Shown here: positions 3,793-30,099 of the stretch, piece by piece | How positions within the stretch are numbered: position 1 is the stretch's first letter | Layout: each line of letters begins with the position of its first letter | Origin: a virus | Strand: one strand, 5' to 3' | Length of the DNA stretch: 45,522 nucleotides | Virus record (IMG/VR): IMGVR_UViG_3300032053_000146 | Span: 1 to 45,522 of that record | Program-made: the position numbers and the translations under genes | The notes under the pieces: model-generated | What the model was told of the DNA's origin: nothing | The model's database searches: none | Seen by the model: only the letters and a program-made list of their open reading frames with translations

Positions 3793-4480
3793 TTTCGTCG
3801 TCCTCGTCGTTTTCGTTATTTTCTAAAAGTTCACATTCCGCTAATGGAATGGTCGGTTGTTTGTGGAGCATTGCATCGTCAACGGCTGCCCGCAATTCCA
3901 CGAGTTCTCTGATGGACAATGCTTTGAAATCGAGTTGGTGGATGCCGCCAATTTCGTGTCTGAGCATCATGAATAATTCTTGCAGCATAACCGGATTGAT
4001 ACTCACGAATTTTGGATTGGCCAATAATATCCGAGTACTGCCTACCGAAGCCAAAGCTTCCCGGTCGGCGTCGGCAGATTCCTCTTTTCGCATCTGTTCA
4101 ATCATTAAGCGCAATTGGGACAATAGGTCGGTTTTTTCTTCAATTTCACCGTCCTTAAGTGCCTTCATGAGCCGGTCGATTAGTCCAGAGATTCCTTGCA
4201 TGCGAGAAAGTGTGGTCGCCCACCGTAGATTTTTTATCTTTTCTTTCCATTCGGTGCGGGCTTGGGCGATTTCCTCTGCCGGTAAATGTGTCGCACGCCA
4301 ACGAAAAGAATCAAAAGTGTGCACCTTCGGGTCGAGCGGGGATACGCCGACTTTTTGCTCAAGCTCCGGGTCGGTCACTTCCTCATACATTTCCCTGTAT
4401 GTAAGATTCGCAGCACGCAAATCAATCACATATTGCCTGATTGCAAGCGGCCAACGCGGTGTGGGGTTTTTCTTAGCCAT
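3782..4480 (-). CDS. HTH-like, helical protein of unknown function
   Basis: A 232-residue protein, ATG chosen at 4480 with AAAGG upstream (a GTG three codons earlier is possible). The N-terminal 75 residues look like a DNA-binding helical domain (IRQYVIDLRAANLTYREMYE). Residues 95-150 are Leu-rich and likely coiled-coil. The C-terminus is strongly acidic (Glu/Asn/Asp). Phage proteins of this build include small terminase subunits, and no other clear small terminase was found, but the gene is far from the large subunit. Function open. Confidence 0.7.
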   Translation of the reverse strand: MAKKNPTPRWPLAIRQYVIDLRAANLTYREMYEEVTDPELEQKVGVSPLDPKVHTFDSFRWRATHLPAEEIAQARTEWKEKIKNLRWATTLSRMQGISGLIDRLMKALKDGEIEEKTDLLSQLRLMIEQMRKEESADADREALASVGSTRILLANPKFVSINPVMLQELFMMLRHEIGGIHQLDFKALSIRELVELRAAVDDAMLHKQPTIPLAECELLENNENDEDDENDG

Positions 4481-6599
4481 TATCTTCACCTTTAATTAAA
4501 TCAGTCGGGTTTTGTGGTTCTGCCGATGCACAATAGGATACAATATTTCCGGCACCTGTTTTTTTATTGATTTTTATTTCACCCTCATCACATATTACTT
4601 TTATCGCATCCGAAAACGTAGCTCTTGGTATAGCGCCACCGACGATGTTTTCGCACACCCGGAGCAAATCTCCGGTAGATATCCACCTTTCCGGGTTTTC
4701 TTTAAACCATTCGTATGCTGCATATTGAGCCACAGCTTTTTTGGATATTTTAAGATTTTTCATGCCCTCTTCTACCGGCAAATGTGACGGTGGCGGAACA
4801 CGCGATAAATCATTGGTATGAACGAGGTAGCCATTAGGCGGGCCTACGTAATTTAAGGTGGTATTCATCAAAGCATTAGTGCGACGACCAATATAGCTTA
4901 ACGTGCGTAAACGTGAAGTCGGCCCTTCTCCATAAGGCATCGTCACCGTAATTACTTCATCGACGGCAGCAGTAATACCGACCGAACCGATAGCAGTATT
5001 GCTTTGCTTGTTCGCATGGTGAATCCAAATCAGCGCGATATTCTTGCATATGACAAGCGGACGTAAATAACTTACCAAATAATGCCAACGTGACGTGTCG
5101 CTGCTGTCCGGCGTTTTCGGGTCAATACGTGCGAGTACGGAATGTACGCTGTCCAATACCACCATATCGGGCTTATATTTAATTAGGTCAAAAACGATTT
5201 CGTTCCATGTGCACGGCATGCGGTCAAGTGTGGGTATAAACAAATTCGATTCAAATTCGGTCGCATCACCAAGGTATGCTTTGAATCGTAATAATACATC
5301 TTGAATGCTTTCCTCCGGCGTCAACCAATATACGCGTTTGCCTTTCTTTAAAGCTTGTACGGCTTCATATGTAGCAATGGTAGATTTACCGGCTTGTTTT
5401 TCACGACCGACCAGCAGCGTAATGCGACCGGGCCAGCTAATATATTGGCCGAGAGCTTCCAGTTTCTCCTCTAAGTTGATTTCTTGTAGCAACTCACCAT
5501 AAGTTTTTACGTTTTCGCGTTCTCTACCTGTGCGACCACCGCTTGGTTGGGCGAATTGGTCGATTAATTCTTGCATCAAATATATTTCGGCTTGCTCTCG
5601 TGCGAGACGTAAGGAAGAGTTGTTTAAACCGAAATCGTAGCCTGCGCCGGTATATGCCGACCGCACAACGGTTTTAATACTATCTTCCGGTAAAGATTGT
5701 TCGTTGGCAGCATTCCATGTGGATATTAAGGATAAGCAGGTATTTTCATCGTAACCAAGTTTGCGACCTTCACTTGCGCGTAATAAAGCTTCATTATTAC
5801 GGCAACCTTGCACCGCAAGAGTTTTTAATAGGATTTGCTCAAATGCGTACTTAGCAATCGCACGTTGTTGGTCTGTGAAAGGGAAAGCGTCCACATTGAT
5901 TATCGGTCGTGCGGCGTATCCTTCCTCGGCGTCTTGCGCAAAACGGGTCAAAGTTGCTTCAATGTTGTCGTCACACATCAAATATCGAGGTGTGCGTGGG
6001 CCGTCGTAGTTCTCAACAAAATGTTGTATTTCTTCGGCTGTGGCTGTTTGTGCAAAAGCAATATCGAGTCTCGTTTTACGCAGACCGCTTTTCCCGTGTA
6101 TGGTATCAACAAGCCTCCATAACCGATTATGGTTATAGATTCGTGTATCAATATCAATATTGACCAAGGATGCGATTTGCTCACAAATACTGCGCATTTG
6201 TGCCGGTAAGTCCTTAGATGGTGCAAGACCGAATAAACCCGAAGCCACGCCAATATGGTACCCTTTATTGCCGGATAAATAAACCTGCGTATATGCGAGC
6301 GCGTCTAAGGTTTCAAGACCGCGTAACAATTTTTGCATCTGTGTAGTCGCAAGTGCCACTGTTTCAGCATCAATATCAAAATATACGAAATCCGACCAAC
6401 AAGCAAAATTACCGGCTCCTCGCACACTTCCGGTAGCTTGGACGTGGTTACGATATTCCTCTTTAAAGCGAAACATCGTAGCGAAGCAATCTACCCCATC
6501 GACCGGTATCTGTAAATCACATATGTTGATAATGGTGTTACGGCTTCGCACGCCACCAAGTGCGGCGTCTATATATTTAAAATCAGATAAATTCTTCAT
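4473..6599 (-). CDS. PrimPol-helicase fusion (primase plus RepA-like ATPase)
   Basis: About 708 residues. The N-terminal third is an archaeo-eukaryotic-type primase/PrimPol: FVYFDID carries the DxD metal motif, SGNKGYHIG the second motif, and RLWRLVDTIHGKSG the third region. A helical linker leads to a RecA-fold ATPase with Walker A GREKQAGKST and Walker B MVVLDS, then IWIHH. It would prime and unwind DNA at the phage fork. Start 6599 has AAGG at good spacing and overlaps the upstream gene; 6611 or 6614 are alternatives. The aminoadenine cyanophage S-2L also replicates with a PrimPol, so this pairing with PurZ is notable. Confidence 0.85.
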   Translation of the reverse strand: MKNLSDFKYIDAALGGVRSRNTIINICDLQIPVDGVDCFATMFRFKEEYRNHVQATGSVRGAGNFACWSDFVYFDIDAETVALATTQMQKLLRGLETLDALAYTQVYLSGNKGYHIGVASGLFGLAPSKDLPAQMRSICEQIASLVNIDIDTRIYNHNRLWRLVDTIHGKSGLRKTRLDIAFAQTATAEEIQHFVENYDGPRTPRYLMCDDNIEATLTRFAQDAEEGYAARPIINVDAFPFTDQQRAIAKYAFEQILLKTLAVQGCRNNEALLRASEGRKLGYDENTCLSLISTWNAANEQSLPEDSIKTVVRSAYTGAGYDFGLNNSSLRLAREQAEIYLMQELIDQFAQPSGGRTGRERENVKTYGELLQEINLEEKLEALGQYISWPGRITLLVGREKQAGKSTIATYEAVQALKKGKRVYWLTPEESIQDVLLRFKAYLGDATEFESNLFIPTLDRMPCTWNEIVFDLIKYKPDMVVLDSVHSVLARIDPKTPDSSDTSRWHYLVSYLRPLVICKNIALIWIHHANKQSNTAIGSVGITAAVDEVITVTMPYGEGPTSRLRTLSYIGRRTNALMNTTLNYVGPPNGYLVHTNDLSRVPPPSHLPVEEGMKNLKISKKAVAQYAAYEWFKENPERWISTGDLLRVCENIVGGAIPRATFSDAIKVICDEGEIKINKKTGAGNIVSYCASAEPQNPTDLIKGEDNG

Positions 6600-6864
6600 T
6601 GGTGCCTTCATCAAGGTTTATACTGGGCCGCTTGATCGATTTCAAATACCGCAAAACAGAATCACCTTCACTTGCTTCAAAAATCCACCCGGTGCCTTTG
6701 CATTTATGGCATTGTGGTCGCATACTACCGGCAAGTTGCTTGTTTAAACAATCCGTTACAATATTTTGTGGTATTGCTGGTGTAGAACGTAGGTTACGTT
6801 CTGTGACGGTAAGCAACAAACCAAAACCAAAGCAATCAGTACACAACACAATGCGGTAATGCAT
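6583..6864 (-). CDS. Small DnaJ-like zinc-finger protein
   Basis: A 93-residue protein with CTDCFGFG near the N-terminus and CHKCKGTGW in the middle, two CxxCxGxG-type knuckles as in DnaJ zinc domains. ATG 6864 has GAGG upstream; longer frames would run into purZ. It sits between purZ and the primase-helicase and overlaps the latter, so it may be an accessory of replication. Function not known. Confidence 0.75.
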   Translation of the reverse strand: MHYRIVLCTDCFGFGLLLTVTERNLRSTPAIPQNIVTDCLNKQLAGSMRPQCHKCKGTGWIFEASEGDSVLRYLKSIKRPSINLDEGTNEEFI

Positions 6865-6866
6865 GA

Positions 6867-7934
6867 TTACATCCTCACTACTGAATATTCGCTGGCATTG
6901 CACGGATGCATTCCCGTACCCACTAAGGTAACTTTCACGCCACTTATTACCTGTATGTGGTGAATGGAACCCCATAATGGCATCGTAAAATCAGGGGTTG
7001 TGATGCCTCGTATAGATGGAGCAATATAGTCGGCAAAAGTCAGAGCGATTTCGGTCGGGCCGTGCAATCGCACACATTGTTTAAGCAACGCATCGTCCCA
7101 TTCGGCTATACGTCGTATTTTGTGCGTGACGGTGGTATATTCCTTTAAATCCGGTACGCCGATACGCTCTCCTAAGGTTTTCCACGTGATTTCATTAGCC
7201 AAAGGGCCACTAGCACCTGCAACGCGTATTGGGTAAGAACGGAAAACGGCAATAATGCGATTTACCGCACGCATTGGTATTCCTACATCGGCTGCAAGTT
7301 GTGCCGGGCCGGGGTCGGTGCTGGTGCAATACGGCCATTCACCATGAATAAGTGATAGACCTTGACCTTGCGCTCCTTCAAGCATAATGCGGCTACCTGC
7401 ACCAATTGCGCGCTCCAAGTAAAGGGTCGTATTTATTCCAGCAAAACGGGCAAACCGTTCATCATCTCGACATAAATCACGGAATAAACGGAATTTATTC
7501 GGGTCGCGTGCGATACGGGCCGCACGCGCCGGGCCGACGCCTTCTCCGGTAGAACCGATTCGCTTGTGCATTTCCCCGTTAACACCGCCTTCTGCAGCGT
7601 GGAAATTCGTATCCAGCACGCCACATTTTTCGTCGATGTAGAGGCGGTCATATATGGTGGGGTCTACCGTTGCAACCGCTTCTATTTCCTCTTGGAGCAA
7701 TTGTGGATTTATGAGACCACCACGTCCAATCATTATGCGGGCGTTCGGGTTTATCCATCCGACCGGAAGCGTCTGCATTTTCCATGCTCTGCCATTGTGT
7801 ACAAAGGTATGCCCGGCATTGGGTGCGCCTACTCGTACATGTATGGCATAATCATTTGCCAATGCTGCAACAATAACGCCTTTCCCCTCACTGCCGTATT
7901 GCCCGCCAAATACAATATCTACTGCCCTACTCAT
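6867..7934 (-). CDS. purZ: PurZ, 2-aminodeoxyadenylosuccinate synthetase
   Basis: 355 residues, adenylosuccinate-synthetase fold. PurZ joins aspartate to dGMP, giving the precursor of dZMP (2-aminoadenine nucleotide). The P-loop reads GGQYGSEGKG at residues 10-19: Ser15 stands where PurA has the catalytic Asp (GDEGKGK), the known hallmark of PurZ. GSTGEGVGPARAARIARD and LEGAQGQG with CTSTDPGP match the IMP/dGMP-binding and catalytic regions of the family. It is shorter than bacterial PurA (about 430 residues), as phage PurZ proteins are. AAGAAAGGG precedes ATG 7934. Neighbours are nucleotide-pool enzymes and a family A polymerase. A host-type PurA is unlikely because of Ser15 and the context. 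Confidence 0.93.
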   Translation of the reverse strand: MSRAVDIVFGGQYGSEGKGVIVAALANDYAIHVRVGAPNAGHTFVHNGRAWKMQTLPVGWINPNARIMIGRGGLINPQLLQEEIEAVATVDPTIYDRLYIDEKCGVLDTNFHAAEGGVNGEMHKRIGSTGEGVGPARAARIARDPNKFRLFRDLCRDDERFARFAGINTTLYLERAIGAGSRIMLEGAQGQGLSLIHGEWPYCTSTDPGPAQLAADVGIPMRAVNRIIAVFRSYPIRVAGASGPLANEITWKTLGERIGVPDLKEYTTVTHKIRRIAEWDDALLKQCVRLHGPTEIALTFADYIAPSIRGITTPDFTMPLWGSIHHIQVISGVKVTLVGTGMHPCNASEYSVVRM

Positions 7935-7939
7935 ATTTA

Positions 7940-8461
7940 TTACCCTTTCTTGTCCGATTGAATGTATATGATTTTTGGGCTGTTATATATCTCGTGCTCC
8001 AAAGTTTCCCCGTACCAATGTCCAATATGTGCGACTACAGATTCAAGTATTGAGTCGAACGTTTGACTTTTCTCCTCGTCGATGAAGAAAATATGCGTGC
8101 ACAACGAACGTGTCCAAAAATGGTCAGCAAGATAGCGTTCATTGGTGATTAGAATAACTGGAATACGACGCTCCCATGCATATATAATTTCACACGGTGT
8201 ACCAAAACTCGTATCTCCACATTTCATCATGACAGCCAGCACCACATGAGCGCGTTCAATATCCTGCAAATCACGCACCACAACTTCATTAGGAGATAAA
8301 TCACTCCACCCGGACGCCTGATATTTTCCACGTAAAGGGTCGAGTGCGTGTAAACCATGCGCTCGCAATTTTGCAGCAATTTTGGTGCGATATTCAGTCG
8401 CATCATGGCCGATTTTGATTTTACCGGCCAAATAAATATAACGTTTATCACGTAATGCCAT
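7940..8461 (-). CDS. Nucleoside 2-deoxyribosyltransferase / dNMP N-hydrolase-like enzyme
   Basis: 173 residues. The pattern fits the nucleoside deoxyribosyltransferase superfamily: YLAG (10-13), ALDPLRGKY (39-47), RDLQDIERAHVVL (63-75) with Asp64/Asp67, and SFGTPCEIIYAWERRIPVI (85-103), where Glu91 aligns with the catalytic Glu. Members swap bases on deoxyribose or hydrolyse dNMPs (Rcl/DNPH1 type). It lies 5 bases upstream of purZ in the same operon, with GAAAGG before the start. In this context it could remove dA or dAMP, or salvage deoxyribose, for Z-DNA synthesis; substrate and reaction type are inference. Confidence 0.78.
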   Translation of the reverse strand: MALRDKRYIYLAGKIKIGHDATEYRTKIAAKLRAHGLHALDPLRGKYQASGWSDLSPNEVVVRDLQDIERAHVVLAVMMKCGDTSFGTPCEIIYAWERRIPVILITNERYLADHFWTRSLCTHIFFIDEEKSQTFDSILESVVAHIGHWYGETLEHEIYNSPKIIYIQSDKKG

Positions 8462-9019
8462 TTATTCGCCCTTTCTGATATTCGCATCATATGGCGTGAA
8501 AAATTCCGTCACCGCTTCGGGCGTAATATCGGTCGGTCTATCGTCTGTACCGGTATGATGGAGTGAATACTCCAACAAAAACAATAGATTGGCTATAGCG
8601 TGCGCCAAATGCGGTAGGCCAGATTCATCGTCATTCTCTTCTCGCATTACCCATTTGACGAAATGACGCATGGCGGAACCGATACAGCGCGACCAACTAA
8701 AACCGGCTTCCCAATTGTGGTCACCATAATGGTACGCACCGAATGTCATTACCTTAGCCACAAGAGTAAGAGAAGCCCAGGGTAACAAATCAAAGCGTAC
8801 TTTTTGTAGAGCCGAGCGTATGGACACACCGTCTGTTTTATCGCAACCCGGCTCTCCGATATCTGCGAATGTTTGCCAAGATTCAATTTGAATTGTTGGC
8901 GTGTTGAGTTCGCACAACTTAGCATAACCGGCTTGGTACCACTCATTTTGTCCGGTGCCTTCTACCTCAAAACTATGTTCTGTGCGGTCTGTTAAACGAA
9001 AAAGAATGCGTGTTTTCAT
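8462..9019 (-). CDS. dATP/dGTP diphosphohydrolase N-terminal-domain-like protein
   Basis: 185 residues. Residues about 68-150 (RFDLLPWASLTLVAKVMTFG, YHYGDHNWEAGFSWSR, MRHFVKW, SGLPHLAHAIANLLFLLEY) match the conserved pattern of the phage domain annotated as dATP/dGTP diphosphohydrolase N-terminal (DUF5664-like). In Z-phages, MazZ-type enzymes make dGMP from dGTP, the PurZ substrate. The first 65 residues form an extra, unrecognised domain. ATG 9019 follows GAAAGG. It is one base from the next gene and 12 bases after the polymerase gene. Activity is inferred from family and context. Confidence 0.75.
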   Translation of the reverse strand: MKTRILFRLTDRTEHSFEVEGTGQNEWYQAGYAKLCELNTPTIQIESWQTFADIGEPGCDKTDGVSIRSALQKVRFDLLPWASLTLVAKVMTFGAYHYGDHNWEAGFSWSRCIGSAMRHFVKWVMREENDDESGLPHLAHAIANLLFLLEYSLHHTGTDDRPTDITPEAVTEFFTPYDANIRKGE

Positions 9020-9030
9020 GGTTGACCTTT

Positions 9031-11115
9031 CTATTTCGCATTTGCCCAATTTTTACCACAACCGATATCGACCGTCAAAGGCACCCAACCTGGCCCAATT
9101 TCCGGAAATTCCATATTTTCACGAATTAGCGCATGTGCTTGTTCGGTGATTTTAGCCGGGTGTTCAAAGACGATTTCATCATGCACCGCTAAGAGCATTT
9201 TGATTGGAAGTTTGCTCTTTACAATAGCTGCATATACGTTAATCAAGGCGATTTTCATAATGTCGGCTGCCGTGCCTTGAATGATGTGTGATAAAGCGGC
9301 ACGTTCCCCTTCACGAATTACCGCTTTGTATGACACGTCCCATAACTCCTCTTCGGTAAATCGGTGTGCCCAAGGTTTTCTGCCTAAATAATCAACAAAC
9401 TGTGCGGTTGTTGCCGGAGTCGGTTTTTGAATCTCCGGTAGCATGCGACGACGCCCAAAATATGTGTCCATATACCCTTGAACGCGCCCTTGACGATAAA
9501 TCTCCTGAATCCATTTATATACGCCGTTGTATGTTGTGTTCCATGTTTTGATTAGCCGTATAGCTTCCTCCACCGATGCGATTGCTCCTCGGTTTACCAC
9601 ATAAAGCCTTTCTCCACCGACGCCGGTCAATACGCTAAAATTGATTCGTTTGGCGACACGGCGTTGTACTTCCGTCGGGGTATCGGTCTTGAATATATCG
9701 CGTGCGGTTGTGACGTGCACATCGAATTTGGGGTCGTAATAGGCATCAATCCATTTAGGTTCTCTTGATAATGATGCAACAACCCGCAATTCCATTTGCG
9801 AATAATCCGCCGAAGTCAAGACATTTCCTTTTGCCGGAACAAACACTTCGCGCACGTGCACCACATCTGTGTCCTCGTCATCCTTACTAATACCTTGCAT
9901 GTTGGGATTAGTGCAGCTAAAACGTCCGGACACCACACCAACATGCCATAATGATGGATGAATGCGACCGGTCAACGGATTGACCATTGTAGGTAATTTT
10001 TGCGTGTAAATAGTGCGCCGGGTATTCGTTTTTGCGTATCGCATAATAGCCGGTACAATTGGATGCACATGTGCAATTTCAGATAATGCATCTTGGTCGG
10101 TGCTGTAACCGCTTTTTACCTTACGGGTCGGCGGTAAACCCATTACATCAAATAACAATATCTGTTTTTGACGAAACGAACCTAAATTCAGTCCGGTCTT
10201 TTTCGTCAGTCGCCGCAATTCCGGGTGTGCGAATACGGTAGCACCGGTCTTGTCGTCCACAACGGTGTCACATGCTTCCATTGCATATATTTCCACATCT
10301 TTACGACATTTTTCGGCTTCAGTCTCAAGTAGCGTATCTAATTCTGCACACCGCTTTGCATCAAAACCGACGCCATTTTGCGCCATTTCGATAACAGGGT
10401 CAATAACCCATGTATCTATGTCCCATATTCCCTTGGCGTTTTGTATGGCTATTTGTATACGCTTATCTCGCCATATTTGCATTGTGATATCGGCATCCTG
10501 ACAACCATATATCCGCTGTTGGTCGGGCGTCAACAAGGTAAAATCAATTTCACCCTCTGTGATTTTCTCCTTGTTCAAATTGGATGCGATAATATCCTTG
10601 AGTGTGATGGTCGGTAAACTTAACAGCAATCTGGCTTGGTCTTTTAATCCTCGATTCTCCTTGTATTCAGTGGTATCCCGGTGGAAACACGCAACCATCA
10701 CATCACGCACGTCATCAATTTTAACGGGTAAACCGTAGCGACGCAGCATTTGCATATCGAACACAGCATTGAACATAAGAATAAGAGCGCCTTTGGTAAG
10801 TGTGCGTAACAAGCGCAGTTGCGGGTCATTAGCTATTGGTACCCAATATGCCTCGTTTGGCTTAAAGCTGAATGAATACCCCAAGAGTGAACAAGTTAAG
10901 GTATCGACACCGGTTGTTTCCGTATCGACCGCAATTTCCACAAGACCGCCAACAGCTTCGTAACGTGGCCACACAAAAAGCATAAACTCCTTGACGTCCA
11001 CTGTGCGATATGTGCTCATGGCGTCCCATTGTTTCAGCATTTCTTCTGCGTAATTAAAAGTGCGTTCCTTTTGCATACCGATCGTATTCACATTTTTTTC
11101 GTCCTCGTCCACTTT
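9031..11115 (-). CDS. dpoZ: Family A DNA polymerase with 3'-5' exonuclease (DpoZ-like)
   Basis: About 694 residues. The exonuclease domain has DTETTG (motif I), FNAVFDMQ (II) and YGCQDAD (III). The polymerase domain has motif A DYSQMELR, motif B RRVAKRINFSVLTGVG and motif C VHDEIVFEHP, so both active sites look intact. In motif B the O-helix Tyr (YG in Pol I) is Thr (LTG), an unusual change near the nascent base pair. Purine-Z phages carry such polymerases (DpoZ) near purZ. I prefer GTG 11115, which has AAAGGA 6 bases upstream; ATG 11148 lacks a good site. No 5'-3' exonuclease domain is present. Confidence 0.9.
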   Translation of the reverse strand, partial: KVDEDEKNVNTIGMQKERTFNYAEEMLKQWDAMSTYRTVDVKEFMLFVWPRYEAVGGLVEIAVDTETTGVDTLTCSLLGYSFSFKPNEAYWVPIANDPQLRLLRTLTKGALILMFNAVFDMQMLRRYGLPVKIDDVRDVMVACFHRDTTEYKENRGLKDQARLLLSLPTITLKDIIASNLNKEKITEGEIDFTLLTPDQQRIYGCQDADITMQIWRDKRIQIAIQNAKGIWDIDTWVIDPVIEMAQNGVGFDAKRCAELDTLLETEAEKCRKDVEIYAMEACDTVVDDKTGATVFAHPELRRLTKKTGLNLGSFRQKQILLFDVMGLPPTRKVKSGYSTDQDALSEIAHVHPIVPAIMRYAKTNTRRTIYTQKLPTMVNPLTGRIHPSLWHVGVVSGRFSCTNPNMQGISKDDEDTDVVHVREVFVPAKGNVLTSADYSQMELRVVASLSREPKWIDAYYDPKFDVHVTTARDIFKTDTPTEVQRRVAKRINFSVLTGVGGERLYVVNRGAIASVEEAIRLIKTWNTTYNGVYKWIQEIYRQGRVQGYMDTYFGRRRMLPEIQKPTPATTAQFVDYLGRKPWAHRFTEEELWDVSYKAVIREGERAALSHIIQGTAADIMKIALINVYAAIVKSKLPIKMLLAVHDEIVFEHPAKITEQAHALIRENMEFPEIGPGWVPLTVDIGCGKNWANAK

Positions 11116-11125
11116 TGTTCCTTTC

Positions 11126-11605
11126 TTATCTGTTGCTGTGTATATCATTAAGGTCAGGAAACCATCTATCCATATCCCAATTGATGCGATTGCCGACCTT
11201 GATTTGCATTATTTCGTATTCACTAAAAACATCGGCCAAGTTCACACGTTTCATGTTTTGTGTGCGTTCCACCCATACTTCCACCGGAATAAAATAAAGA
11301 ATTTTATCCTGTGGTGACCGGTAATGAATAATCGCTAAAAACCCATCACCACACGCAGTATTGATTGCCCGAAGGGTATTAATTTGTCCCGGTCGCACGC
11401 GGTCAGTAGCAAATGCCCCCGACCGGTGGAGTTTCCATTCAATACCGAGTAATCGACCAGCCACGCAAAGTATGGTATCGACCGCACGTTCGTTGCTGTA
11501 GTTATGGCCGGGGCGAAAATAATCGGGCACCTTAATCCACCAAAAATACTTAAACTGCCGTTGCCAATTTTTTAATATGCCTCTTGTGGCGTCTGTTTCG
11601 TTCAT
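11126..11605 (-). CDS. PD-(D/E)xK nuclease, possibly Holliday-junction resolvase or VRR-NUC type
   Basis: 159 residues. AVDTILCVAGRLLGIEWKLH carries the D...ExK metal-binding core of PD-(D/E)xK nucleases, preceded by a Trp/aromatic-rich segment, followed by RPGQINTLRAI and a beta strand (GFLAIIHY), as in VRR-NUC and RecU-like enzymes. It probably resolves branched phage DNA or acts in recombination. The start overlaps the previous stop (ATGA) with AAGGA upstream, and it lies between the MazG-like and polymerase genes. Confidence 0.75.
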   Translation of the reverse strand: MNETDATRGILKNWQRQFKYFWWIKVPDYFRPGHNYSNERAVDTILCVAGRLLGIEWKLHRSGAFATDRVRPGQINTLRAINTACGDGFLAIIHYRSPQDKILYFIPVEVWVERTQNMKRVNLADVFSEYEIMQIKVGNRINWDMDRWFPDLNDIHSNR

Positions 11606-11853
11606 TGTGTTTCCTTGGGAAGAACCAAGAGAAATCTCATAGCCATTGCTGCTGTGTGAATGGCTTCCGTACGAAGCACGTTAATATCATGGTGCCGATT
11701 ATTTTCGTAATCATTGCATGATTGCACCAATTCTCCGCATTCCTCTTGCACAATAGCAGCAGCATGTATGTAATCGGTAGGCCAGCCGGGAAATTTCATT
11801 TCAGCCCTGCGCACTTCTGTGCATATCGCAGCAAATACTTCTGATACCGTCAT
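11602..11853 (-). CDS. MazG-like NTP pyrophosphatase domain protein
   Basis: 83 residues. FPGWPTDYIHAAAIVQEECG with E37-E38-x-x-E41 is the first metal-binding helix of MazG-type all-alpha pyrophosphatases, and TEAIHTAAMAMRFL is the second helix, where the usual ExxD has become E-A-I-H. Small phage proteins of this type hydrolyse dNTPs to dNMPs. In Z-phage S-2L a MazG-like MazZ supplies dGMP for PurZ, so this is a candidate MazZ. Start ATG 11853 (GGAG upstream) rather than TTG 11871. Substrate is inferred. Confidence 0.75.
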   Translation of the reverse strand: MTVSEVFAAICTEVRRAEMKFPGWPTDYIHAAAIVQEECGELVQSCNDYENNRHHDINVLRTEAIHTAAMAMRFLLVLPKETQ

Positions 11854-12161
11854 TTTAATATCTCCGTCCAAGCATTCTTGGCTAGTGTTTTAACATTAGC
11901 GACAAAACCAACATCAAAGCAACATTCGCTGTGTGGTGTACGACGGGCAATACCCAATTCCACAAGAATCTCCCATAAAACGGATTGCAAACGTATAACT
12001 TCGTCCAAAAGTTCCTCTTTGGTGCGTTTAGCCAAATCATCTTTGGCAGGTAGTTCATGTTCACCAACGCCTCGTAAAGGCAAATTTGTGGTTCTTGCTT
12101 GTCTGTGCGTTGTTTTTGCTGCAGGTGCTACACCAAAACCTTTATTAATCTTATTTGCCAT
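11850..12161 (-). CDS. Hypothetical protein, coiled-coil middle
   Basis: 103 residues. The N-terminal 45 residues are basic and low-complexity; residues 45-75 form a Leu-rich helix (KEELLDEVIRLQSVLWEILVE). It overlaps the genes on both sides by a few bases, so it is clearly part of the operon. It may be a small partner of the adjacent MazG-like protein, but no family is recognised. Confidence 0.7.
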   Translation of the reverse strand: MANKINKGFGVAPAAKTTHRQARTTNLPLRGVGEHELPAKDDLAKRTKEELLDEVIRLQSVLWEILVELGIARRTPHSECCFDVGFVANVKTLAKNAWTEILK

Positions 12162-13158
12162 TTTTCACCCATAAACCATAACCGGGAAAAGATGTTTTTA
12201 TTGTATCGCTTTGGCCTGTGTAAAACAACTCCATTACACGCCAATATTCTTTCACACGTTGCTCCAAAGTGTGAAAGAATAATATGTCTTTTTGTCCTTG
12301 TCTTGCAATCTGTTCCCTTTCTACTTCATGCATCAAATAATAATCAATTGCCGTGCGTAAACCATTAAAGGAATCATCATAAGTGACGCAATGCTCGCCC
12401 TCTTGCCACATCAAATTAAGATGCTGCACCTTGTGATTAATGAAAAATGCTCCGCTGCCCATTGCGTTGTATGCACGGTTGCTGGTGACGAATGCTCCGG
12501 GGTTGATAAACAATGCACGTTGAATATTGAATGCGATACGACTTTGCGCATAAGCTTCGGCCATGCGCCACCCACGTATTTCATTGAGCATACCGGGCAC
12601 GTGAATAACGAAATTGCAATTATAGTGTTTATTTAATTCATCAAGCCAACGTTTTCTGTGGTCGTCCACGCTTCCGATAAACACAATGTCGGATATTGGT
12701 TTAATAGGGTCGAGCCGTTTAGGCAATCCGATTGTCTCACCGGAATTATTCTTGGAACAGAAAATATGGTCAAAATACTGCGGCATCCATAGCACACAAG
12801 GAGCAAGTTCACGGTACCGGGTCGCCGTCTCCATTATGGAAAAGATTAATATATCCGCCACATTATTCAATTGTGTACGCCACATGCGGTCGCGTCTACA
12901 TTCCGTCATATCGGGGTACCACAAAACAAGTTTTGCTCCGGCTTCTCGCATTTTACGGTAATAAGGCACACAATGAGCGCGTGCGACATCGGAGAAAACG
13001 AAATCCGGCTTATACTCCTGAAATGCTGCTAAGGCATTTTCCGGATGTTCTCTGCTTCCGGTAACCGCCACATTCAAGCCTTGACGCTGCATTTCTTCGG
13101 CAATAAACACACCGGCAAAACGTCTCTCAAAACCGCAAGACCATATCAACACTCTCAT
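12151..13158 (-). CDS. Glycosyltransferase, GT-B fold, CgeB/family 4-like
   Basis: 335 residues. MRVLIWSCGF starts an N-terminal Rossmann domain. The C-terminal half has SDIVFIGSVDDHRKRWLDEL, an R-x-AFNIQRA segment, AYNAMGSGAFFINHKV and a GEHCVTYD element, matching the glycosyl transferase group 1 / CgeB-like pattern (sugar-nucleotide binding around the E/D-rich loop). It probably transfers a sugar to phage DNA, a virion protein or a host surface glycan; nothing here decides which. ATG 13158 has GGAG upstream and begins the fold; an in-frame ATG at 13218 would add 20 residues. Confidence 0.75.
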   Translation of the reverse strand: MRVLIWSCGFERRFAGVFIAEEMQRQGLNVAVTGSREHPENALAAFQEYKPDFVFSDVARAHCVPYYRKMREAGAKLVLWYPDMTECRRDRMWRTQLNNVADILIFSIMETATRYRELAPCVLWMPQYFDHIFCSKNNSGETIGLPKRLDPIKPISDIVFIGSVDDHRKRWLDELNKHYNCNFVIHVPGMLNEIRGWRMAEAYAQSRIAFNIQRALFINPGAFVTSNRAYNAMGSGAFFINHKVQHLNLMWQEGEHCVTYDDSFNGLRTAIDYYLMHEVEREQIARQGQKDILFFHTLEQRVKEYWRVMELFYTGQSDTIKTSFPGYGLWVKNGK

Positions 13159-13220
13159 GGGTCGCTCCACACTATCGTAAACCTTACGCCAACCTTGCCG
13201 TCTGTTGTGATGCCACATAT

Positions 13221-13496
13221 TTATTTACCACAGCACCGTTTGTGTTTTAAACCGCTATGACAGGGGCACAACTCATTGCGTCCGATTTTGCGAAATGGGC
13301 GACGATATGTGCCACGCATTTGTGAATCCCACAATAACCGGACGAGTCGCGCTATTTTACGCAATCTCTTTGGTGACGCCGGTATTTGAGTTTCTTGCGT
13401 TTGTGCCGCTACGCGTCGTTTAAACCAGCGTGCGAATAACCATTGCCAAAAAAGCGCAATGAGCGGTATTCGGGTAAACCAGTTAAATAATTTCAC
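13221..13496 (-). CDS. SEC-C zinc-motif protein with N-terminal membrane helix
   Basis: 91 residues. The C-terminus [20 protein letters not shown] is a complete SEC-C zinc motif, as at the end of SecA. The N-terminal 25 residues are hydrophobic and aromatic (a likely membrane helix), joined by a basic stretch. GTG 13496 overlaps the previous stop (GTGA), with AGGAG 9 bases upstream. It lies between two glycosyltransferase genes, so it might tether that machinery at the membrane; this is inference. Confidence 0.8.
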
Positions 13497-14374
13497 GTGG
13501 TCACTCCTAATATATGAATAGTTGCTTTGAGTATTTCATCCATCGACGGCATCCACCGCATACGTTTTTTCCAATAAGCATCAGTCGGTGACGGTAAAAC
13601 ATGCACGTTTACGTCAAACGGGTTCCAGAATTTTACCATGCGAACAGCATGTTCTGAACAAGTCTGCCATGCTACTTGTGGTAATTCACATAATGTAGCA
13701 AAATGAATCGGGCCACATTGTGGGCCGACGATTACGCGTGCTCTGGACATTATATATGCCAAATGGAAAAGCGGAATATCGCGTAAATCAGCGGTTCCAT
13801 CAATGTGTGCGGCTGAATCGCTTCTACCAACGCAACCAATCCGTATATTTTCGTCCGTTTGTTGATGCAATTTTCGTACGAATTCCTCAGCGTGCTGTAT
13901 TGACCAATTACGAAAGCCAGTATTGCATTTATCCGTATTGCGCACAATCAATAGTGCGTCAACGGGGTCATATTCCACAAAAGGCACAAACATTCGGAAT
14001 TGTCCACGTTCGAACATTGTCCGATACGATATGAAATGATGTTCTGTTTTTATACCATCAACCCACCACCGACGTGGGCCAGATGTACCACAAAACCAGC
14101 GTATGTTGGAGTCGGGTGGCATTGTTAACCGTTCGTAGTCGGCTTTATGTACTGCGTAATTTTTCCACATATCGGTCTCTTCACCTTCTGGAATATAAGA
14201 CCGAATATGCTGTGCGAAATCGGTATAAAGAAAACCATGACCGGGCCGACAAATAACCGTCACATCGTGGTCTCGAAAATCACGTGCGACGGTAGCGCGT
14301 ATCCAAGCTTGCCAGCAAAAAAGCTCCCACCCAAATTCACCAACCCAAGGGCCAAAAATAATGCGCTTAAGCAT
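13493..14374 (-). CDS. Glycosyltransferase, family 9 (heptosyltransferase)-like
   Basis: 293 residues. The C-terminal half shows [26 protein letters not shown], then [27 protein letters not shown], the GT-B nucleotide-sugar pocket of family 9 and related enzymes. The N-terminus ([15 protein letters not shown]) resembles a class found in gene clusters for surface sugars. ATG 14374 has AAGG upstream. It is read with the SEC-C and CgeB-like genes and so belongs to a small glycosylation module within the replication operon. Acceptor unknown. Confidence 0.75.
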
Positions 14375-18324: not shown

Positions 18325-19002
18325 TTAAGGGAAAAGTTTTGGTTCGCCCGTCTGCAAATGCCAACTGCGCGCCATTCGTCCAGTGTGATTGATGACGGTA
18401 TCAGGGTATACGCTACCGTTCAAATATCCTTTATTTTGTGCGTTCCGGAAATATCGCGTATCAACCGTTCGAATCAAACGAGCCGTATCCCATGCGCCTG
18501 TTCGCTGATATATGTCGTCTGCAATCATTACGCAGCATCCGGGGGGAAAACGCACAATATTTATTTGGGTTGTTTTGCCTTGTCGTACATCTAATTGATG
18601 GGTCGGCCAACGCATACCGCTCAACCCACACAAAGGCAGACTTTTGTGGTCTTCGTATGTGTCCACCATTTTCTTATGCCAGCCGGGCAAAAACTCAAGG
18701 TCATTGTCGCAGAATAAATAATGCGTTGGTTTTGGCTTGTTGAGTATTTTGCACCGTTCAATCGCAACAGACACGCCAAGATTCCACGCATACGGCTTAC
18801 CGCAATTTTTAGACATCAACACAAGATTGTCGATATGTTTTCGGTATTGCACCAACAAACCAATTGTTTCATCAAGCGAACCGTTGTCAACTACCGTAAT
18901 GCTTATGCGGTCGTCTTTTGTTGCCAATAACGACCGCAATGTTGTACACATTAATTCGGTGCGCCCAAAGGAAACAATAATGACGGCTGTGTGGTGTTCC
19001 AC
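18325..19002 (-). CDS. Glycosyltransferase family 2-like
   Basis: 225 residues, GT-A fold: AVIIVSFGRTELMCTTLRSL, then SITVVDNGSLDETIGLL, LNLGV-like NLGVSVAIER and YLFCDNDLEFLPGWHK, where DND is the DxD metal motif. It transfers a sugar from an activated donor; the acceptor may be a virion protein or a host surface glycan. It is the last gene of the late operon, right after the endolysin. GTG 19002 overlaps the endolysin stop (TAGTG), so translation is coupled. Confidence 0.85.
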   Translation of the reverse strand: MEHHTAVIIVSFGRTELMCTTLRSLLATKDDRISITVVDNGSLDETIGLLVQYRKHIDNLVLMSKNCGKPYAWNLGVSVAIERCKILNKPKPTHYLFCDNDLEFLPGWHKKMVDTYEDHKSLPLCGLSGMRWPTHQLDVRQGKTTQINIVRFPPGCCVMIADDIYQRTGAWDTARLIRTVDTRYFRNAQNKGYLNGSVYPDTVINHTGRMARSWHLQTGEPKLFP

Positions 19003-20162: not shown

Positions 20163-23000
20163 TTATCGCCACGTATAGGCTTTAAGTTCGGTATGCTTCA
20201 ATGGCGTTCCATTGTGCGCATATAAATTATAGTTTTCCGTAAAGATTTGCACATAGCGTGCGGTATGTGTGACGGACAAATCAAGTAGAATAATACCGGC
20301 AACAGTGCCAGCACGGCTACAAGGGTCGAATGATTGCGCTAATGCCCATGTATTACCGTCGTCTGATACATAAACATCAATCTGGTCGTGTGAACCATAA
20401 GGGAATATTCCGGGATCAGCGCCAGAAGTATAATCGAGCAACATTAGCCGGTCAATATCCTGTGCGCTGCCAAAATCAATGCCTAATGCTTGGTAATTAT
20501 CTTGTACTGCGAGCACCCAAGTTGTTACATTACTATCAATCACTTGAGCATTTGCACTAAGTGTCACATTAACCGGCGACCACTTAGTGCTGCTCCCTTT
20601 ACTTAATCCGGCAGACGGTATAATAAAATAGAATGCTTCCGGTGACGGCGACGGTGACGGCGACGGAGAAGGCGACGGTGACGGCGACGGAGAAGGCGAC
20701 GGTGACGGCGACGGAGAAGGCGACGGTGACGGAGAGGGCGATACCGGCAAAGGTGACGGTGAAAGTGATGGACTCGCACCACCAAGATGTTCGTATAATT
20801 CGACGGCTATGATTGTGGTGGAATTCATGTTACGTTCCACATCGGTAATCAATAAAGACTTACCTGCCCACGTTACACCAAAAGCCGTACGTATTTCATC
20901 AATGTCGTCACTAAAAGCAATCCAATCTCCGGGCTGTAATGCTGAATGCGAAAAACCGGGTGTCGTAAATTCAACAACGATATGCTCTTTAGACCATACG
21001 CCATCGGTGGTATTAACATAATGCTCCGCAATGTGTGTTGCAGCAATACCAAGGGTATTCGGCCAGCTAAAAGATGCTTTTCGCACACCAAGAATACTTT
21101 GTGATGCAGCATCTTCATATATATCCACATCCAAGTATCGGTCACACTCATTTTGCCAACGTGAACTTAACGTTAAATGATTTATGATGTGTGCTGTTTT
21201 TCCCATGTAAAAATCATCTTCAACTAATTGACGGCGTGCGATTGTCGCGCTAATAGCAGGCGTTTTATCATTAAGAGGAACACAACGCAATTGTCCAGCA
21301 CCGGACGCAGCTACCACAAAAGTGCTTTGTTCAGAAACCTCTTGAACGACTTGGCTTAGCATGCGGTTTTGGTCGACAATATTAATACGCGCTTGTACGT
21401 TAACATTACAAGCCGCATCAAAACTATCCATATCAATATCGGCATCAGACAAACCAAGTATTGTGCGGTAAAGGTCTTCAATAATTAGTGCAGGGTCTTC
21501 GTTTACGTGGTTGTCGTCTCCGTCATAAGGATTTCCCACACGTGCGAGGTCACCGTACACCTTACCACTACATGCAACCCACTGGTTTTTATGAAATTGC
21601 ATATCGGTATATGTGTAGCGGAGTTTCATATCACCGCATCGCGCAATTATTTGGTCACCCACAACTCCATTAGCAGTACCACCAACACCGCCTGCATTCC
21701 ACCGCACACCGACAGCAAATTCGTTTCCGGGTGTTTCGGTTCCACTTATTTGCGACCCAGTTATTTCATTAGTTGCGTCACCGGGGAATATCCAATTACC
21801 GCTTCCCCACACCACAGGAACGCCGCCACCAGCACCGGTATCATTAGCAGCTGCACATTGGAGTTTTTCGTCTCCACCTTCTAATCCATAATAAAAATCA
21901 ATGCCGAATCCGTGTACCTCGATTTGTGGAAAATCTTGGTCTGCTAAGGTATTGCGATACCCGCCTTTTATATACCCACCATTGTCTAAATGTGCGCGTA
22001 GAATATGTGAGTAAAAAAGACCCCATAATGCTTTTCCCCACACATATGTACCATCATCACTATACCGGTCTTTAAAAATGCAAAACGTATCAAGTGTTTC
22101 ATCAGCTAAATTTTGGCGGTTAGGGTTTAAGCTCTCAAAATAGCTTTCATCTGCATACACATCCGGCAATGTAGGATTAAGCAAAAATTTTAACTGACAA
22201 GTTACATGCGACGCTGCCCAAGCGATACCGTCGTCGTCTGTATCTTGATTTGCGTATACCGCCGGTAAGACGGTAGGCCCACCAACATCACGATACATGT
22301 TATAAACGGAACCACTATCAGACATTTGGTGAATCGTCTTAACTGCATGGTCGGCAACCACACAACGTGGATTTAGTTTATTAGGTTGGTAATTAACCGC
22401 ACGACAAAGACCGGTCGCATCAGGTTCGTCATTGTAACAATCCGGCGTATCGAATACGCCATACACAAGCGGTATGGCTTCAAGTTTTGTCTCTGTCGGA
22501 GCGTCAACCCACTCGTCTTGCACCAAACGTAACGGAATTCTCGTATCCCACAAACAACTGCGGTCTTTGGCCGTAAATCGTACGCGATTATTCTCTACGT
22601 CAGGAGCTTGTAAGATATACCCGGAAAAGAATAACAAACAATCAGATATGTCGGTAATCCCATCAACCCATTGGTATATTTCGCACATCGCATTATTCAA
22701 ATTAGACAATAAACGCGACGCCTGTATTGGTTGTGTACCGGTTTGTGGGTAATATGGGTCGTCTGCAAGGAGTATGGTCACATCAGAAACACGCCATTGC
22801 TTTGTGGTAATGTCAATACTTTCTCGCTGTGTGGAATGTGATACCAACATTGGGTATACCGGTTTACTGTTCAGCCCTTTTGGCATTGGTCGTGTGGAAA
22901 AATAATATTCCACCGCATTGATGGTGACAACAAGAACCACATCACGCTGATGACCGGATACCGCCGCGTAAGAATCAAAAAGAATACTTGTACTTAGCAT
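20163..23000 (-). CDS. Large tail-tip protein with Ser-Pro linker and C-terminal discoidin-like domain
   Basis: 945 residues, starting at ATG 23000 in a TGATG overlap with the previous gene. Residues 1-750 form a large tail protein, presumably the central hub or receptor-binding part. A Ser-Pro run (20640-20778) then links to a C-terminal domain of about 150 residues with SSTKWSPVNVTLSANAQVID, LGIDFGSAQDIDRLMLLDYT, IDVYVSDDGNTWALAQSF and ARYVQIF, the layout of F5/8 type C (discoidin) domains that bind sugars. It is likely part of host recognition. Confidence 0.75.
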   Translation of the reverse strand: MLSTSILFDSYAAVSGHQRDVVLVVTINAVEYYFSTRPMPKGLNSKPVYPMLVSHSTQRESIDITTKQWRVSDVTILLADDPYYPQTGTQPIQASRLLSNLNNAMCEIYQWVDGITDISDCLLFFSGYILQAPDVENNRVRFTAKDRSCLWDTRIPLRLVQDEWVDAPTETKLEAIPLVYGVFDTPDCYNDEPDATGLCRAVNYQPNKLNPRCVVADHAVKTIHQMSDSGSVYNMYRDVGGPTVLPAVYANQDTDDDGIAWAASHVTCQLKFLLNPTLPDVYADESYFESLNPNRQNLADETLDTFCIFKDRYSDDGTYVWGKALWGLFYSHILRAHLDNGGYIKGGYRNTLADQDFPQIEVHGFGIDFYYGLEGGDEKLQCAAANDTGAGGGVPVVWGSGNWIFPGDATNEITGSQISGTETPGNEFAVGVRWNAGGVGGTANGVVGDQIIARCGDMKLRYTYTDMQFHKNQWVACSGKVYGDLARVGNPYDGDDNHVNEDPALIIEDLYRTILGLSDADIDMDSFDAACNVNVQARINIVDQNRMLSQVVQEVSEQSTFVVAASGAGQLRCVPLNDKTPAISATIARRQLVEDDFYMGKTAHIINHLTLSSRWQNECDRYLDVDIYEDAASQSILGVRKASFSWPNTLGIAATHIAEHYVNTTDGVWSKEHIVVEFTTPGFSHSALQPGDWIAFSDDIDEIRTAFGVTWAGKSLLITDVERNMNSTTIIAVELYEHLGGASPSLSPSPLPVSPSPSPSPSPSPSPSPSPSPSPSPSPSPSPSPSPEAFYFIIPSAGLSKGSSTKWSPVNVTLSANAQVIDSNVTTWVLAVQDNYQALGIDFGSAQDIDRLMLLDYTSGADPGIFPYGSHDQIDVYVSDDGNTWALAQSFDPCSRAGTVAGIILLDLSVTHTARYVQIFTENYNLYAHNGTPLKHTELKAYTWR
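20640..20778 (-). repeat. (Ser-Pro)n-coding DNA repeat 1
   Basis: A 6-base unit (GACGGY or GACGGA on the plus strand) repeated about 17 times, then degenerating. It encodes the Ser-Pro linker of the large tail-tip protein. The same unit fills 30227-30649 and 31642-31932. Confidence 0.9.
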
Positions 23001-23851
23001 CACATACCCCATGTTCTATATTCAGCACGACCACCTATCCACACAGGTATGCGCTTAAACCCTATTTCGCGTAAGGTAATGGTCGGCTCGTATGTGTCAT
23101 ACGCTATGCGATGTTCGCATAGTGTGTCTTCAAACATAAAAACAGAGAGTACGGCAGATTCTAAATCGCTTTGGAAAATGATTGGCAAATGCGAACCGTG
23201 CGCAGCTTTGTACGCGTCGCGCAAATTATTCCATTGGTCGGTTGCAGTCGTAAAAAGGAAACTTCGTTGAATATTCCGTTGTTTTCCAACAGCACCAACA
23301 TCTGATACATATGTGCTACCGGAGCGCATTGTCGATATGCGATTATGGTAAAGCAATTTGTTTGTTTCCGGTATTTGGTGGCACCAAGGCAAGGAATAAT
23401 CAATCATAAACCACACAGCGCTGATTTCCGGTAAAATTGTTACAGGCGGTAATTCAAAATTAATAAAATCAATACGCCAATATCGCGCAGTTTTAGGTAA
23501 GCCGGTTGTCCATGTTACCACAGGTACATAGCCGGAACGTGCGGTTGCAAAAAGAATTGGCACACCAAGCGGGGTGTATGTCGTGTTATCTGTGCTGTAA
23601 TATATGCGCCACGCTTTAGGATTTTCATATTCTTCATTATAGTTGTGCAGCCAAATGGGTATTGCATCCACCGATACATCCGTACCAAGGTCGATGTACA
23701 AACTGGATGTGTCGTATGTATGAGGCATCCACCAAGAATCAATGTCATTGTCTAAAGTTTGCTTGGCTTGGTGGCCAGACATATACGATATTGTGCGACC
23801 TGCTGTAATGCGAGGAATCGCATCTACCGGAGCATAAAGTATTCGCGCCAT
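23000..23851 (-). CDS. Discoidin-like tail protein (second of a tandem pair)
   Basis: 283 residues. SLYIDLGTDVSVDAIPIWLH, WRIYYSTDNTTYTPLG and LPKTARYWRIDFINFELPPV give the F5/8 type C-like pattern in the first 150 residues; the C-terminal half is a separate domain. The order of elements matches the preceding gene (23851-24693), so the two are paralogues. The start overlaps the previous stop (TAATG). Probably a distal-tail or tip component. Confidence 0.7.
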   Translation of the reverse strand: MARILYAPVDAIPRITAGRTISYMSGHQAKQTLDNDIDSWWMPHTYDTSSLYIDLGTDVSVDAIPIWLHNYNEEYENPKAWRIYYSTDNTTYTPLGVPILFATARSGYVPVVTWTTGLPKTARYWRIDFINFELPPVTILPEISAVWFMIDYSLPWCHQIPETNKLLYHNRISTMRSGSTYVSDVGAVGKQRNIQRSFLFTTATDQWNNLRDAYKAAHGSHLPIIFQSDLESAVLSVFMFEDTLCEHRIAYDTYEPTITLREIGFKRIPVWIGGRAEYRTWGM

Positions 23852-29691: not shown

Positions 29692-30099
29692 TTACCTCGT
29701 AAAAATGTGTGACATATACTCCCGCAATATCCGCTTCATGAACTTTTCGTTGCGCTTAATTGCTACGTCCACGTATGGCCGCGCAGGAATATATGTTGCG
29801 TGCCCTGCACCCGTCCATCCGCCGAAATTATGAATGCGTGCATAAGCACAATCCGAACCTGTAACCAATCGCCATCCGCCGCGTACGATTTGCATTTCCC
29901 ATGCCCATGAATTATATAGGGTGCCTGTTCGTTTATGCAGCATGCGACCGGCAAGATTATATTTAATACTGGTCACTAAATGCGCTCCAATTTCCGATAA
30001 TGAATATGGAGCTTGACGCAGTTGTCGCAAAGCATTTTTGAGCACCGGCGAATCAAATCCGACCGGTCTTGCGTAAATGGACATTTGCAGAATCATCAT
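29692..30099 (-). CDS. HK97 gp10 / gpG-like tail completion protein
   Basis: About 136 residues. [20 protein letters not shown] and [28 protein letters not shown] give the IHNFGG...IPARP signature of virion-morphogenesis / head-tail joining proteins. The start is uncertain: ATG 30099, 30096 or 30084, all overlapping the end of the upstream gene in another frame. Confidence 0.75.

What the first reader, a model, noticed from the sequence alone, without database searches (positions are those of the whole stretch)
7940..8461. Deoxyribosyltransferase-fold gene next to purZ may replace DatZ
No HD-domain dATPase is visible, yet Z-phages need to remove dATP. A nucleoside deoxyribosyltransferase or dNMP N-hydrolase beside purZ could destroy dA or dAMP, or convert it to other nucleotides. 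This would be a different way of excluding adenine.
Basis: inference. Interest (0 to 1): 0.85.

Follow-up and report, generated by a model that had tools for sequence, protein, structure and literature searches.

The report
Independently acquired deoxyribosyltransferase-fold enzyme beside purZ
Next to the gene that lets this virus build DNA without adenine sits a gene for an enzyme that probably breaks down adenine nucleotides; a related enzyme with that job was described in 2026, but this one looks like a separately acquired stand-in that lacks two residues the known one needs.

Summary
The ORF at 7940-8461(-) is real: 173 aa, NDT fold (PF05014, E 1.9e-10; AlphaFold pLDDT 81; best PDB matches NDT, DNPH1, MilB). 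It sits in a tight run pol - DUF5664 - NDT - purZ (gaps -19, 0, 5 bp). PurZ has the diagnostic Ser; no DatZ (PF12917) and no dUTPase (PF00692) match exists in the record. Asp12 and Asn77, which DmtZ needs for full activity, occur together in 43 of 49 other purZ-locus NDTs; here and in one 66%-identical relative they are Lys16 and Asp64. Trees put both with NDTs of records without purZ (100/100), and descent with their own PurZ clade's NDTs is rejected (AU p 0.007). Window PurZ also falls outside the published PurZ and PurZ0 groups. Best reading: a second, independent recruitment of an NDT-fold dNMP N-glycosidase, working after the adjacent DUF5664 (dATP to dAMP) to remove adenine nucleotides. 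Substrate is untested and base preference is open.

The parts
7940..8461 (-). NDT-fold gene, 173 aa. By alignment to Ghobes DmtZ: Tyr10 (Y6), Lys16 (D12), Pro42 (P57), Asp64 (N77), Ser85 (T97), Glu91 nucleophile (E103), Trp116 (W124)
   Evidence: fold; residue mapping
8462..9049 (-). DUF5664 / PF18909 dATP/dGTP diphosphohydrolase-like gene (listed from TTG; an in-frame ATG at 9019 may be the true start)
   Evidence: (PF18909 E 1.7e-29); start is my reading of the sequence
6867..7934 (-). purZ, 355 aa, Ser in the GSEGKG motif
9031..11148 (-). family A DNA polymerase with 3'-5' exonuclease domain; scores under the cut-offs of both NCBIfam DpoZ models and groups with neither DpoZ set
11602..11871 (-). 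89-aa MazG-like (EECGEL) small protein; a homologous segment is fused to the C-terminus of a DmtZ-type NDT in L088
4473..6614 (-). primase/helicase downstream of purZ, same order in L002

Best explanation
The gene encodes an NDT-superfamily 2'-deoxynucleoside 5'-monophosphate N-glycosidase that this phage lineage acquired independently of DmtZ. The adjacent DUF5664 enzyme would cut dATP to dAMP, and the NDT enzyme would then break dAMP through a Glu91-linked deoxyribose 5-phosphate intermediate into adenine and deoxyribose 5-phosphate (possibly also passing the sugar phosphate to free Z), so that adenine nucleotides cannot be recharged and the polymerase sees dZTP made by way of PurZ. Shown: fold, catalytic-residue pattern, operon-like arrangement, conservation in L002, absence of DatZ- and dUTPase-family genes, placement outside DmtZ. 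Inferred: 5'-monophosphate substrate (Ser six residues before the nucleophile, as MilB Ser97/Glu103), adenine preference, hydrolysis rather than transfer, and that the phage DNA carries Z.
For: NDT fold and triad Tyr10/Asp64/Glu91. Close contact with DUF5664 and purZ, same order kept in L002 with NDT the best conserved of 10 gene pairs compared. NDT within 4 kb of purZ in 29 of 57 well-flanked purZ loci, 24 of the 29 also with Dut or DUF5664; none with DatZ. NDTs at purZ loci are fused to other candidate dNTP pyrophosphohydrolases: dUTPase (many loci), DUF1599 (L015 over the cut-off; L024, L120 below it), MazG-like (L088). DmtZ and DUF5664 biochemistry in print (PMC12884076). Independent origin: Asp12+Asn77 in 43 of 49 other purZ-locus rows, Lys+Asp in window and L002, Asp at position 77 in 12 of 12 NDTs from records without purZ; split 100/100; vertical descent with own PurZ clade's NDTs rejected, p-AU 0.007.
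Against: No activity is known for any close relative. DmtZ's adenine-contacting Asp12 is Lys here; in DmtZ D12A and D12R abolish dAMP hydrolysis and N77D cuts kcat/Km about 100-fold (PMC12884076). The nearest relatives lie in records without purZ, one of which (L094/L095) has NDT and DUF5664 near each other without purZ, so the pair can exist without Z-DNA. 25 of 57 purZ loci have neither NDT nor DatZ within 4 kb, so an NDT is not always needed. A single clade of all purZ-locus NDTs was not rejected in one row set (p-AU 0.27) and only just in another (0.047). Fold scores do not separate transferase from hydrolase.
Confidence: 0.55

Rival explanations
1. It is a fast-evolving true DmtZ ortholog, with the same dual hydrolase/transferase activity, that lost Asp12 and Asn77.
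For: Same position beside purZ; shared Pro42, Gly87, Pro89, Glu91 and Trp116 with Ghobes DmtZ; one tree set does not reject a single clade of all purZ-locus NDTs (p-AU 0.27).
Against: 41 DmtZ-side rows against 13 rows with window split at 100/100; clade with NDTs of the window's own PurZ clade rejected (p-AU 0.007); tblastn with window NDT against 50,697 phages hits two records, neither with purZ, although 217 records match its PurZ.
Confidence: 0.12
2. It is a dNMP N-glycosidase with another base preference (dUMP, dCMP or a keto base), a general phage nucleotide-pool enzyme that merely lies in this operon.
For: Sister genes in records without purZ; Lys16 lies where MilB has Arg23, a pyrimidine-recognising residue (PMC4081090, passages; my register); the Wayne DUF5664 also acts on dUTP (PMC12884076).
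Against: Tight linkage with purZ and DUF5664 kept in L002 at 66% identity; recurrent NDT-purZ pairing across purZ lineages.
Confidence: 0.22
3. A transferase: it swaps adenine of dAMP for free guanine, making dGMP, the substrate of PurZ.
For: Pro42, which the DmtZ paper calls a transferase feature (Pro57), and a basic residue in place of the adenine-accepting Asp; DmtZ itself transfers from dAMP to Z (PMC12884076).
Against: Of the bases tried with DmtZ only Z accepted the sugar phosphate (PMC12884076); Pro42 is present in all 63 NDT rows here, so it does not single out transferases.
Confidence: 0.08

Closest known systems
[quoted passage not shown] 2026, PMC12884076)
   Same: NDT fold, purZ neighbourhood, no DatZ, catalytic Tyr and Glu, conserved Pro and Trp; DUF5664 also in Wayne
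   Different: Lys16 for Asp12, Asp64 for Asn77; no dUTPase gene in the record; PurZ outside the PurZ0 clade; NDT groups with NDTs of records without purZ
DNPH1/Rcl and MilB 5'-monophosphate N-hydrolases
   Same: Fold (VIA Z 14.2 and 14.1), Asp in the triad, Ser six residues before the nucleophile as in MilB (Ser97/Glu103), basic residue at the MilB Arg23 position (my register of the F-L-(G/A)-(G/A)-P-F-(R/K) motif)
   Different: 15-20% identity in the structural alignments; conserved Pro42 that the DmtZ paper calls a transferase feature; phage operon
NDT genes in phages with 7-deazaguanine clusters (Rhizobium X3_2, Edwardsiella ZHS, Aminobacter Erebus)
   Same: Same NDT branch, also beside a DNA-base-modification pathway
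   Different: No purZ; QueC and other preQ0 genes instead; function unknown
DatZ
   Same: Proposed net role, removal of adenine deoxynucleotides
   Different: HD hydrolase that turns dATP into dA (PMC12884076); unrelated fold; not found in the record

Membership tests
NDT superfamily (PF05014) | Profile match over the curated cut-off and alpha/beta NDT fold | tested here: met
   41.3 bits against 28.8; Foldseek and VIA top rows NDT, DNPH1, MilB
NDT superfamily (PF05014) | Catalytic Tyr, Asp/Asn and nucleophilic Glu | tested here: met
   Tyr10, Asp64, Glu91
DmtZ | Asp12, needed for activity and proposed to select adenine | tested here: not met
   Lys16 in window and L002
DmtZ | Asn77 in the triad | tested here: not met
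   Asp64; 43 of 49 other purZ-locus rows have both Asp12 and Asn77
DmtZ | Single clade of purZ-phage NDTs | tested here: inconclusive
   Best tree puts window and L002 outside (41 against 13 rows, 100/100) and one clade of all purZ-locus NDTs gives p-AU 0.047, but 0.27 with fewer rows
DmtZ | Companion dutZ and PurZ0-type PurZ | tested here: not met
   No PF00692 in the record; PurZ in a separate 16-row clade (SH-aLRT 99), PurZ0 names in another of 48 rows
DmtZ | dAMP hydrolysis and dAMP-to-Z transfer | not testable with these tools
   needs purified enzyme
PurZ (the neighbour) | Ser in place of PurA Asp13 | tested here: met
   GGQYGSEGK
5'-monophosphate N-hydrolases (DNPH1, MilB) | Ser that binds the phosphate, six residues before the nucleophile | tested here: met
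   Ser85/Glu91 against MilB Ser97/Glu103 and DNPH1 Ser98 (its Glu number recalled)
5'-monophosphate N-hydrolases (DNPH1, MilB) | Hydrolysis, not transfer | not testable with these tools
   fold scores are close to those of transferases
DatZ | YfbR-like HD domain (PF12917) | tested here: not met
   0 matches in the window record

The most novel reading that the evidence does not exclude
A third lineage of purZ phages replaced DmtZ by an NDT of separate descent, taken from phages without purZ, and this enzyme handles adenine in a new way: with Lys16 instead of Asp12 it may accept both adenine and a 6-keto purine and convert dAMP plus guanine directly into dGMP, feeding PurZ while removing adenine.
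Probability: 0.08. Interest if true: 0.8.

Novelty: new variant of a known kind. Interest (0 to 1): 0.5.

Why it matters
If right, NDT-fold enzymes were drafted at least twice into the cassette that makes adenine-free DNA, each time beside a dNTP pyrophosphohydrolase. That would show that the pair 'dATP to dAMP, then dAMP to free base' is a repeatable solution, extend the published convergence story (PMC12884076) to a third PurZ lineage and a second NDT lineage, and give a natural enzyme in which the residues thought to set DmtZ's adenine choice are absent, so that the rule can be tested directly. The same NDT branch also occurs in 7-deazaguanine phages, which hints at a wider use in DNA-base replacement.

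Tried and rejected
Direct DmtZ orthology: considered first, after the paper was found, and lowered by residues and trees. A second, hidden DmtZ in the window: only one PF05014 match and one local-profile match. A dUTPase or DatZ elsewhere in the record: none. Solved-structure search by sequence: no hit at E 1. Bacterial relatives by scanning genome contigs with A3: none confirmed. PurZ as a single query in viral contigs: none confirmed, so alignments were used. Structure comparison could not tell transferase from hydrolase. L106, whose PurZ is 60% identical to the window's, ends shortly upstream of purZ, so presence of the NDT there is undecided.

Rows dropped: PurZ row L034 (too short); NDT rows L041 and L042 (weak, odd); also L080, L051, L066, L026, L055, L005, L100, L028 (long branches) and L071, L074 (near-duplicates); identical NDT rows were merged. 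The Pfam search was given 50 of the 91 sources then at hand (the window plus L002-L091): L003, L004 and L053-L091 were not given to it, but all were in the local survey. PF12917 was searched in 34 records and 40 others. Of the 80 loci, 13 records were given to the Pfam search and 70 new loci to the local profiles, which printed 39 of them. Deoxyribosyltransferase genes in 7-deazaguanine phages: one search found 6 papers, passages of 4 were read; none of those passages assigns a role to such a gene in such a phage.

Full report
What was checked. The finding names an ORF at 7940-8461. It exists on the minus strand, 173 aa from ATG, matches PF05014 (E 1.9e-10) and PF15891 (E 1.5e-7), both over their cut-offs, and is the only PF05014 match in the record. 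The record is a virus record of 45,522 bases, all of it in the window.

The neighbourhood. On the minus strand the order is DNA polymerase A (9031-11148), DUF5664 (8462-9049), NDT (7940-8461), purZ (6867-7934), with gaps of -19, 0 and 5 bases, then a primase/helicase (4473-6614). Its Pfam name is 'dATP/dGTP diphosphohydrolase, N-terminal'. PurZ carries GSEGKG, Ser where E. coli PurA has Asp13; of the 88 purZ-like rows scored, 87 show Ser and one (L027) did not fit my pattern. The window record has no PF12917 (DatZ family), no PF00692 (dUTPase) and one PF18909.

Literature. One paper in the library holds the words PurZ, deoxyribosyltransferase and phage together: Poubanne et al., NAR, February 2026, PMC12884076. 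I read its abstract, introduction, sections 22 to 26 in full, and passages of others. [quoted passage not shown] In that paper all 98 PurZ0 genomes have dutZ and 85 have dmtZ; purZ phages mostly have datZ; DmtZ is a single clade.

Is this gene DmtZ? I mapped Ghobes DmtZ residues onto an alignment of 63 NDT rows and counted. Of 49 purZ-locus rows other than window and L002, 43 have Asp12 and Asn77; the six exceptions are L090, L026, L055, L080, L042 and L041. Of 12 rows from records without purZ, none has Asp12 and all 12 have Asp at position 77. Window and L002 have Lys and Asp. In the paper, D12A and D12R abolish dAMP hydrolysis and N77D lowers kcat/Km from 2.64e5 to 2.76e3. Tyr10, Pro42, Gly87, Pro89, Glu91 and Trp116 match DmtZ.

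Trees. With 51 rows, window and L002 group with 11 rows from records without purZ at 100/99; holding all purZ-locus NDTs together was not rejected (p-AU 0.27). With three more purZ-locus rows (54 in all) the split is 100/100, all purZ-locus NDTs together give p-AU 0.047, and window plus L002 with the NDTs of six others placed by PurZ similarity in or near their own PurZ clade (L015, L024, L025 by the tree; L108, L120, L128 by the search, not in that tree) give p-AU 0.007. I therefore favour independent acquisition; the test against a very deep common origin with DmtZ is weak. The relatives: Moorella phage MTATph1, viral contigs L093 and L095-L097, Rhizobium phage X3_2, Edwardsiella phage ZHS, Aminobacter phage Erebus, PhiCh1, HRTV-29, a Bradyrhizobium plasmid. 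A PF00709 search found no match in any of 13 records, these relatives plus L094 and L100. Three of the phages (X3_2, ZHS, Erebus) have QueC and keep the NDT inside or beside the preQ0 cluster.

Which PurZ? In an 89-row tree with E. coli PurA as outgroup (quick method, SH-aLRT only) window PurZ lies in a 16-row clade (99) with L002 and the 14 loci L012-L025, apart from the 48-row clade (100) that holds Wayne, Ghobes and Galactica (PurZ0) and from phiVC8, SH-Ab 15497 and S-2L (100). This looks like a third lineage. Gene content in that clade varies: Dut with DUF5664 in the nine-row subclade (L013 and relatives), Dut alone (L012), DUF5664 alone (L017), DUF5664 with NDT (window, L002), NDT alone or with Dut (L015, L024, L025). 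The polymerases of window and L002 form a pair outside both DpoZ groups and outside the polymerases of their own PurZ clade (33-row quick tree).

Survey. Local profiles, iterated from seeds, were run on the loci at hand; 89 have purZ. Of 57 with at least 4 kb on both sides, 29 have an NDT within 4 kb, 24 of these also Dut or DUF5664; 3 have DatZ and none has both; 25 have neither NDT nor DatZ. The nearest NDT lies on the purZ strand in 53 of 54 loci. The loci were chosen by similarity to window PurZ and include near-duplicates, so these are not frequencies for all purZ phages; datZ phages are under-sampled. In named phages, tblastn with Ghobes DmtZ finds 116 records (105 Arthrobacter, 6 Gordonia, 5 Streptomyces), the same genus counts as among the 217 records matching window PurZ; identity of the records was not checked one by one. 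Window NDT itself matches two phages only, Moorella MTATph1 and Rhizobium X3_2.

Fusions speak for the two-step logic. Besides dUTPase-NDT fusions, an NDT is fused to DUF1599 in L015 (over the cut-off) and probably in L024 and L120 (below it), and in L088 to a segment homologous to the MazG-like 89-aa protein at window 11602-11871. If these partners are dNTP pyrophosphohydrolases, which I infer, then purZ loci repeatedly combine an enzyme making dNMP with an NDT.

Mechanism. The AlphaFold model (12-row alignment, mean pLDDT 81, pTM 0.77) matches NDTs (VIA Z up to 15.2), DNPH1 (14.2) and MilB (14.1), too close to choose. Ser85 stands six residues before Glu91, as MilB Ser97 before Glu103; Ser97 contacts phosphate (PMC4081090, passages); DNPH1 Ser98 also binds phosphate (PMC10603095, one passage). 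Lys16 falls, in my register, at MilB Arg23, which touches base and phosphate. This favours a nucleotide substrate. Base choice cannot be read from sequence; adenine is inferred from context.

Assessment. Observation confirmed. Interpretation partly supported: known in kind through DmtZ, but here carried by a different NDT branch, paired with DUF5664, in a PurZ lineage outside the two published ones. The substrate is untested.

Noticed in passing
window 11602-11871: 89-aa MazG-like protein; a homologous segment is the C-terminal part of a DmtZ-type NDT ORF in L088, so it may be a dNTP pyrophosphohydrolase serving Z metabolism.
   Followed up: partly
L004, L098, L099: NDT-fold genes inside or beside preQ0/7-deazaguanine DNA modification clusters of three phages, on the same NDT branch as the window gene.
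   Followed up: partly
window 9031-11148 and L002 7055-9121: Polymerase pair outside both published DpoZ groups and unlike the polymerases of the same PurZ clade; perhaps a third Z-accepting polymerase lineage.
   Followed up: partly
L121 9031-11472: Uracil-DNA-glycosylase domain fused to a family A DNA polymerase directly after purZ.
   Followed up: no
L015 10986-11783: DUF1599 (nucleotide modification associated domain 1) fused to an NDT in a purZ locus; weaker signs in L024 and L120.
   Followed up: partly
L094 2989-4521 and L095 7507-9341: Records without purZ that carry a window-branch NDT and DUF5664 close together, with a MazG-like gene beside them in L095.
   Followed up: partly
window 20163-23012, 30053-31138, 31513-32961: Long Ser-Pro repeat tracts in predicted proteins of the structural-gene half of the window.
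   Followed up: no
window 12151-13218, 13493-14374, 18325-19002, 38399-39109: ORFs that look by eye like glycosyltransferases and an FkbM-type methyltransferase, the last between terminase- and portal-like ORFs (names recalled, not searched).
   Followed up: no
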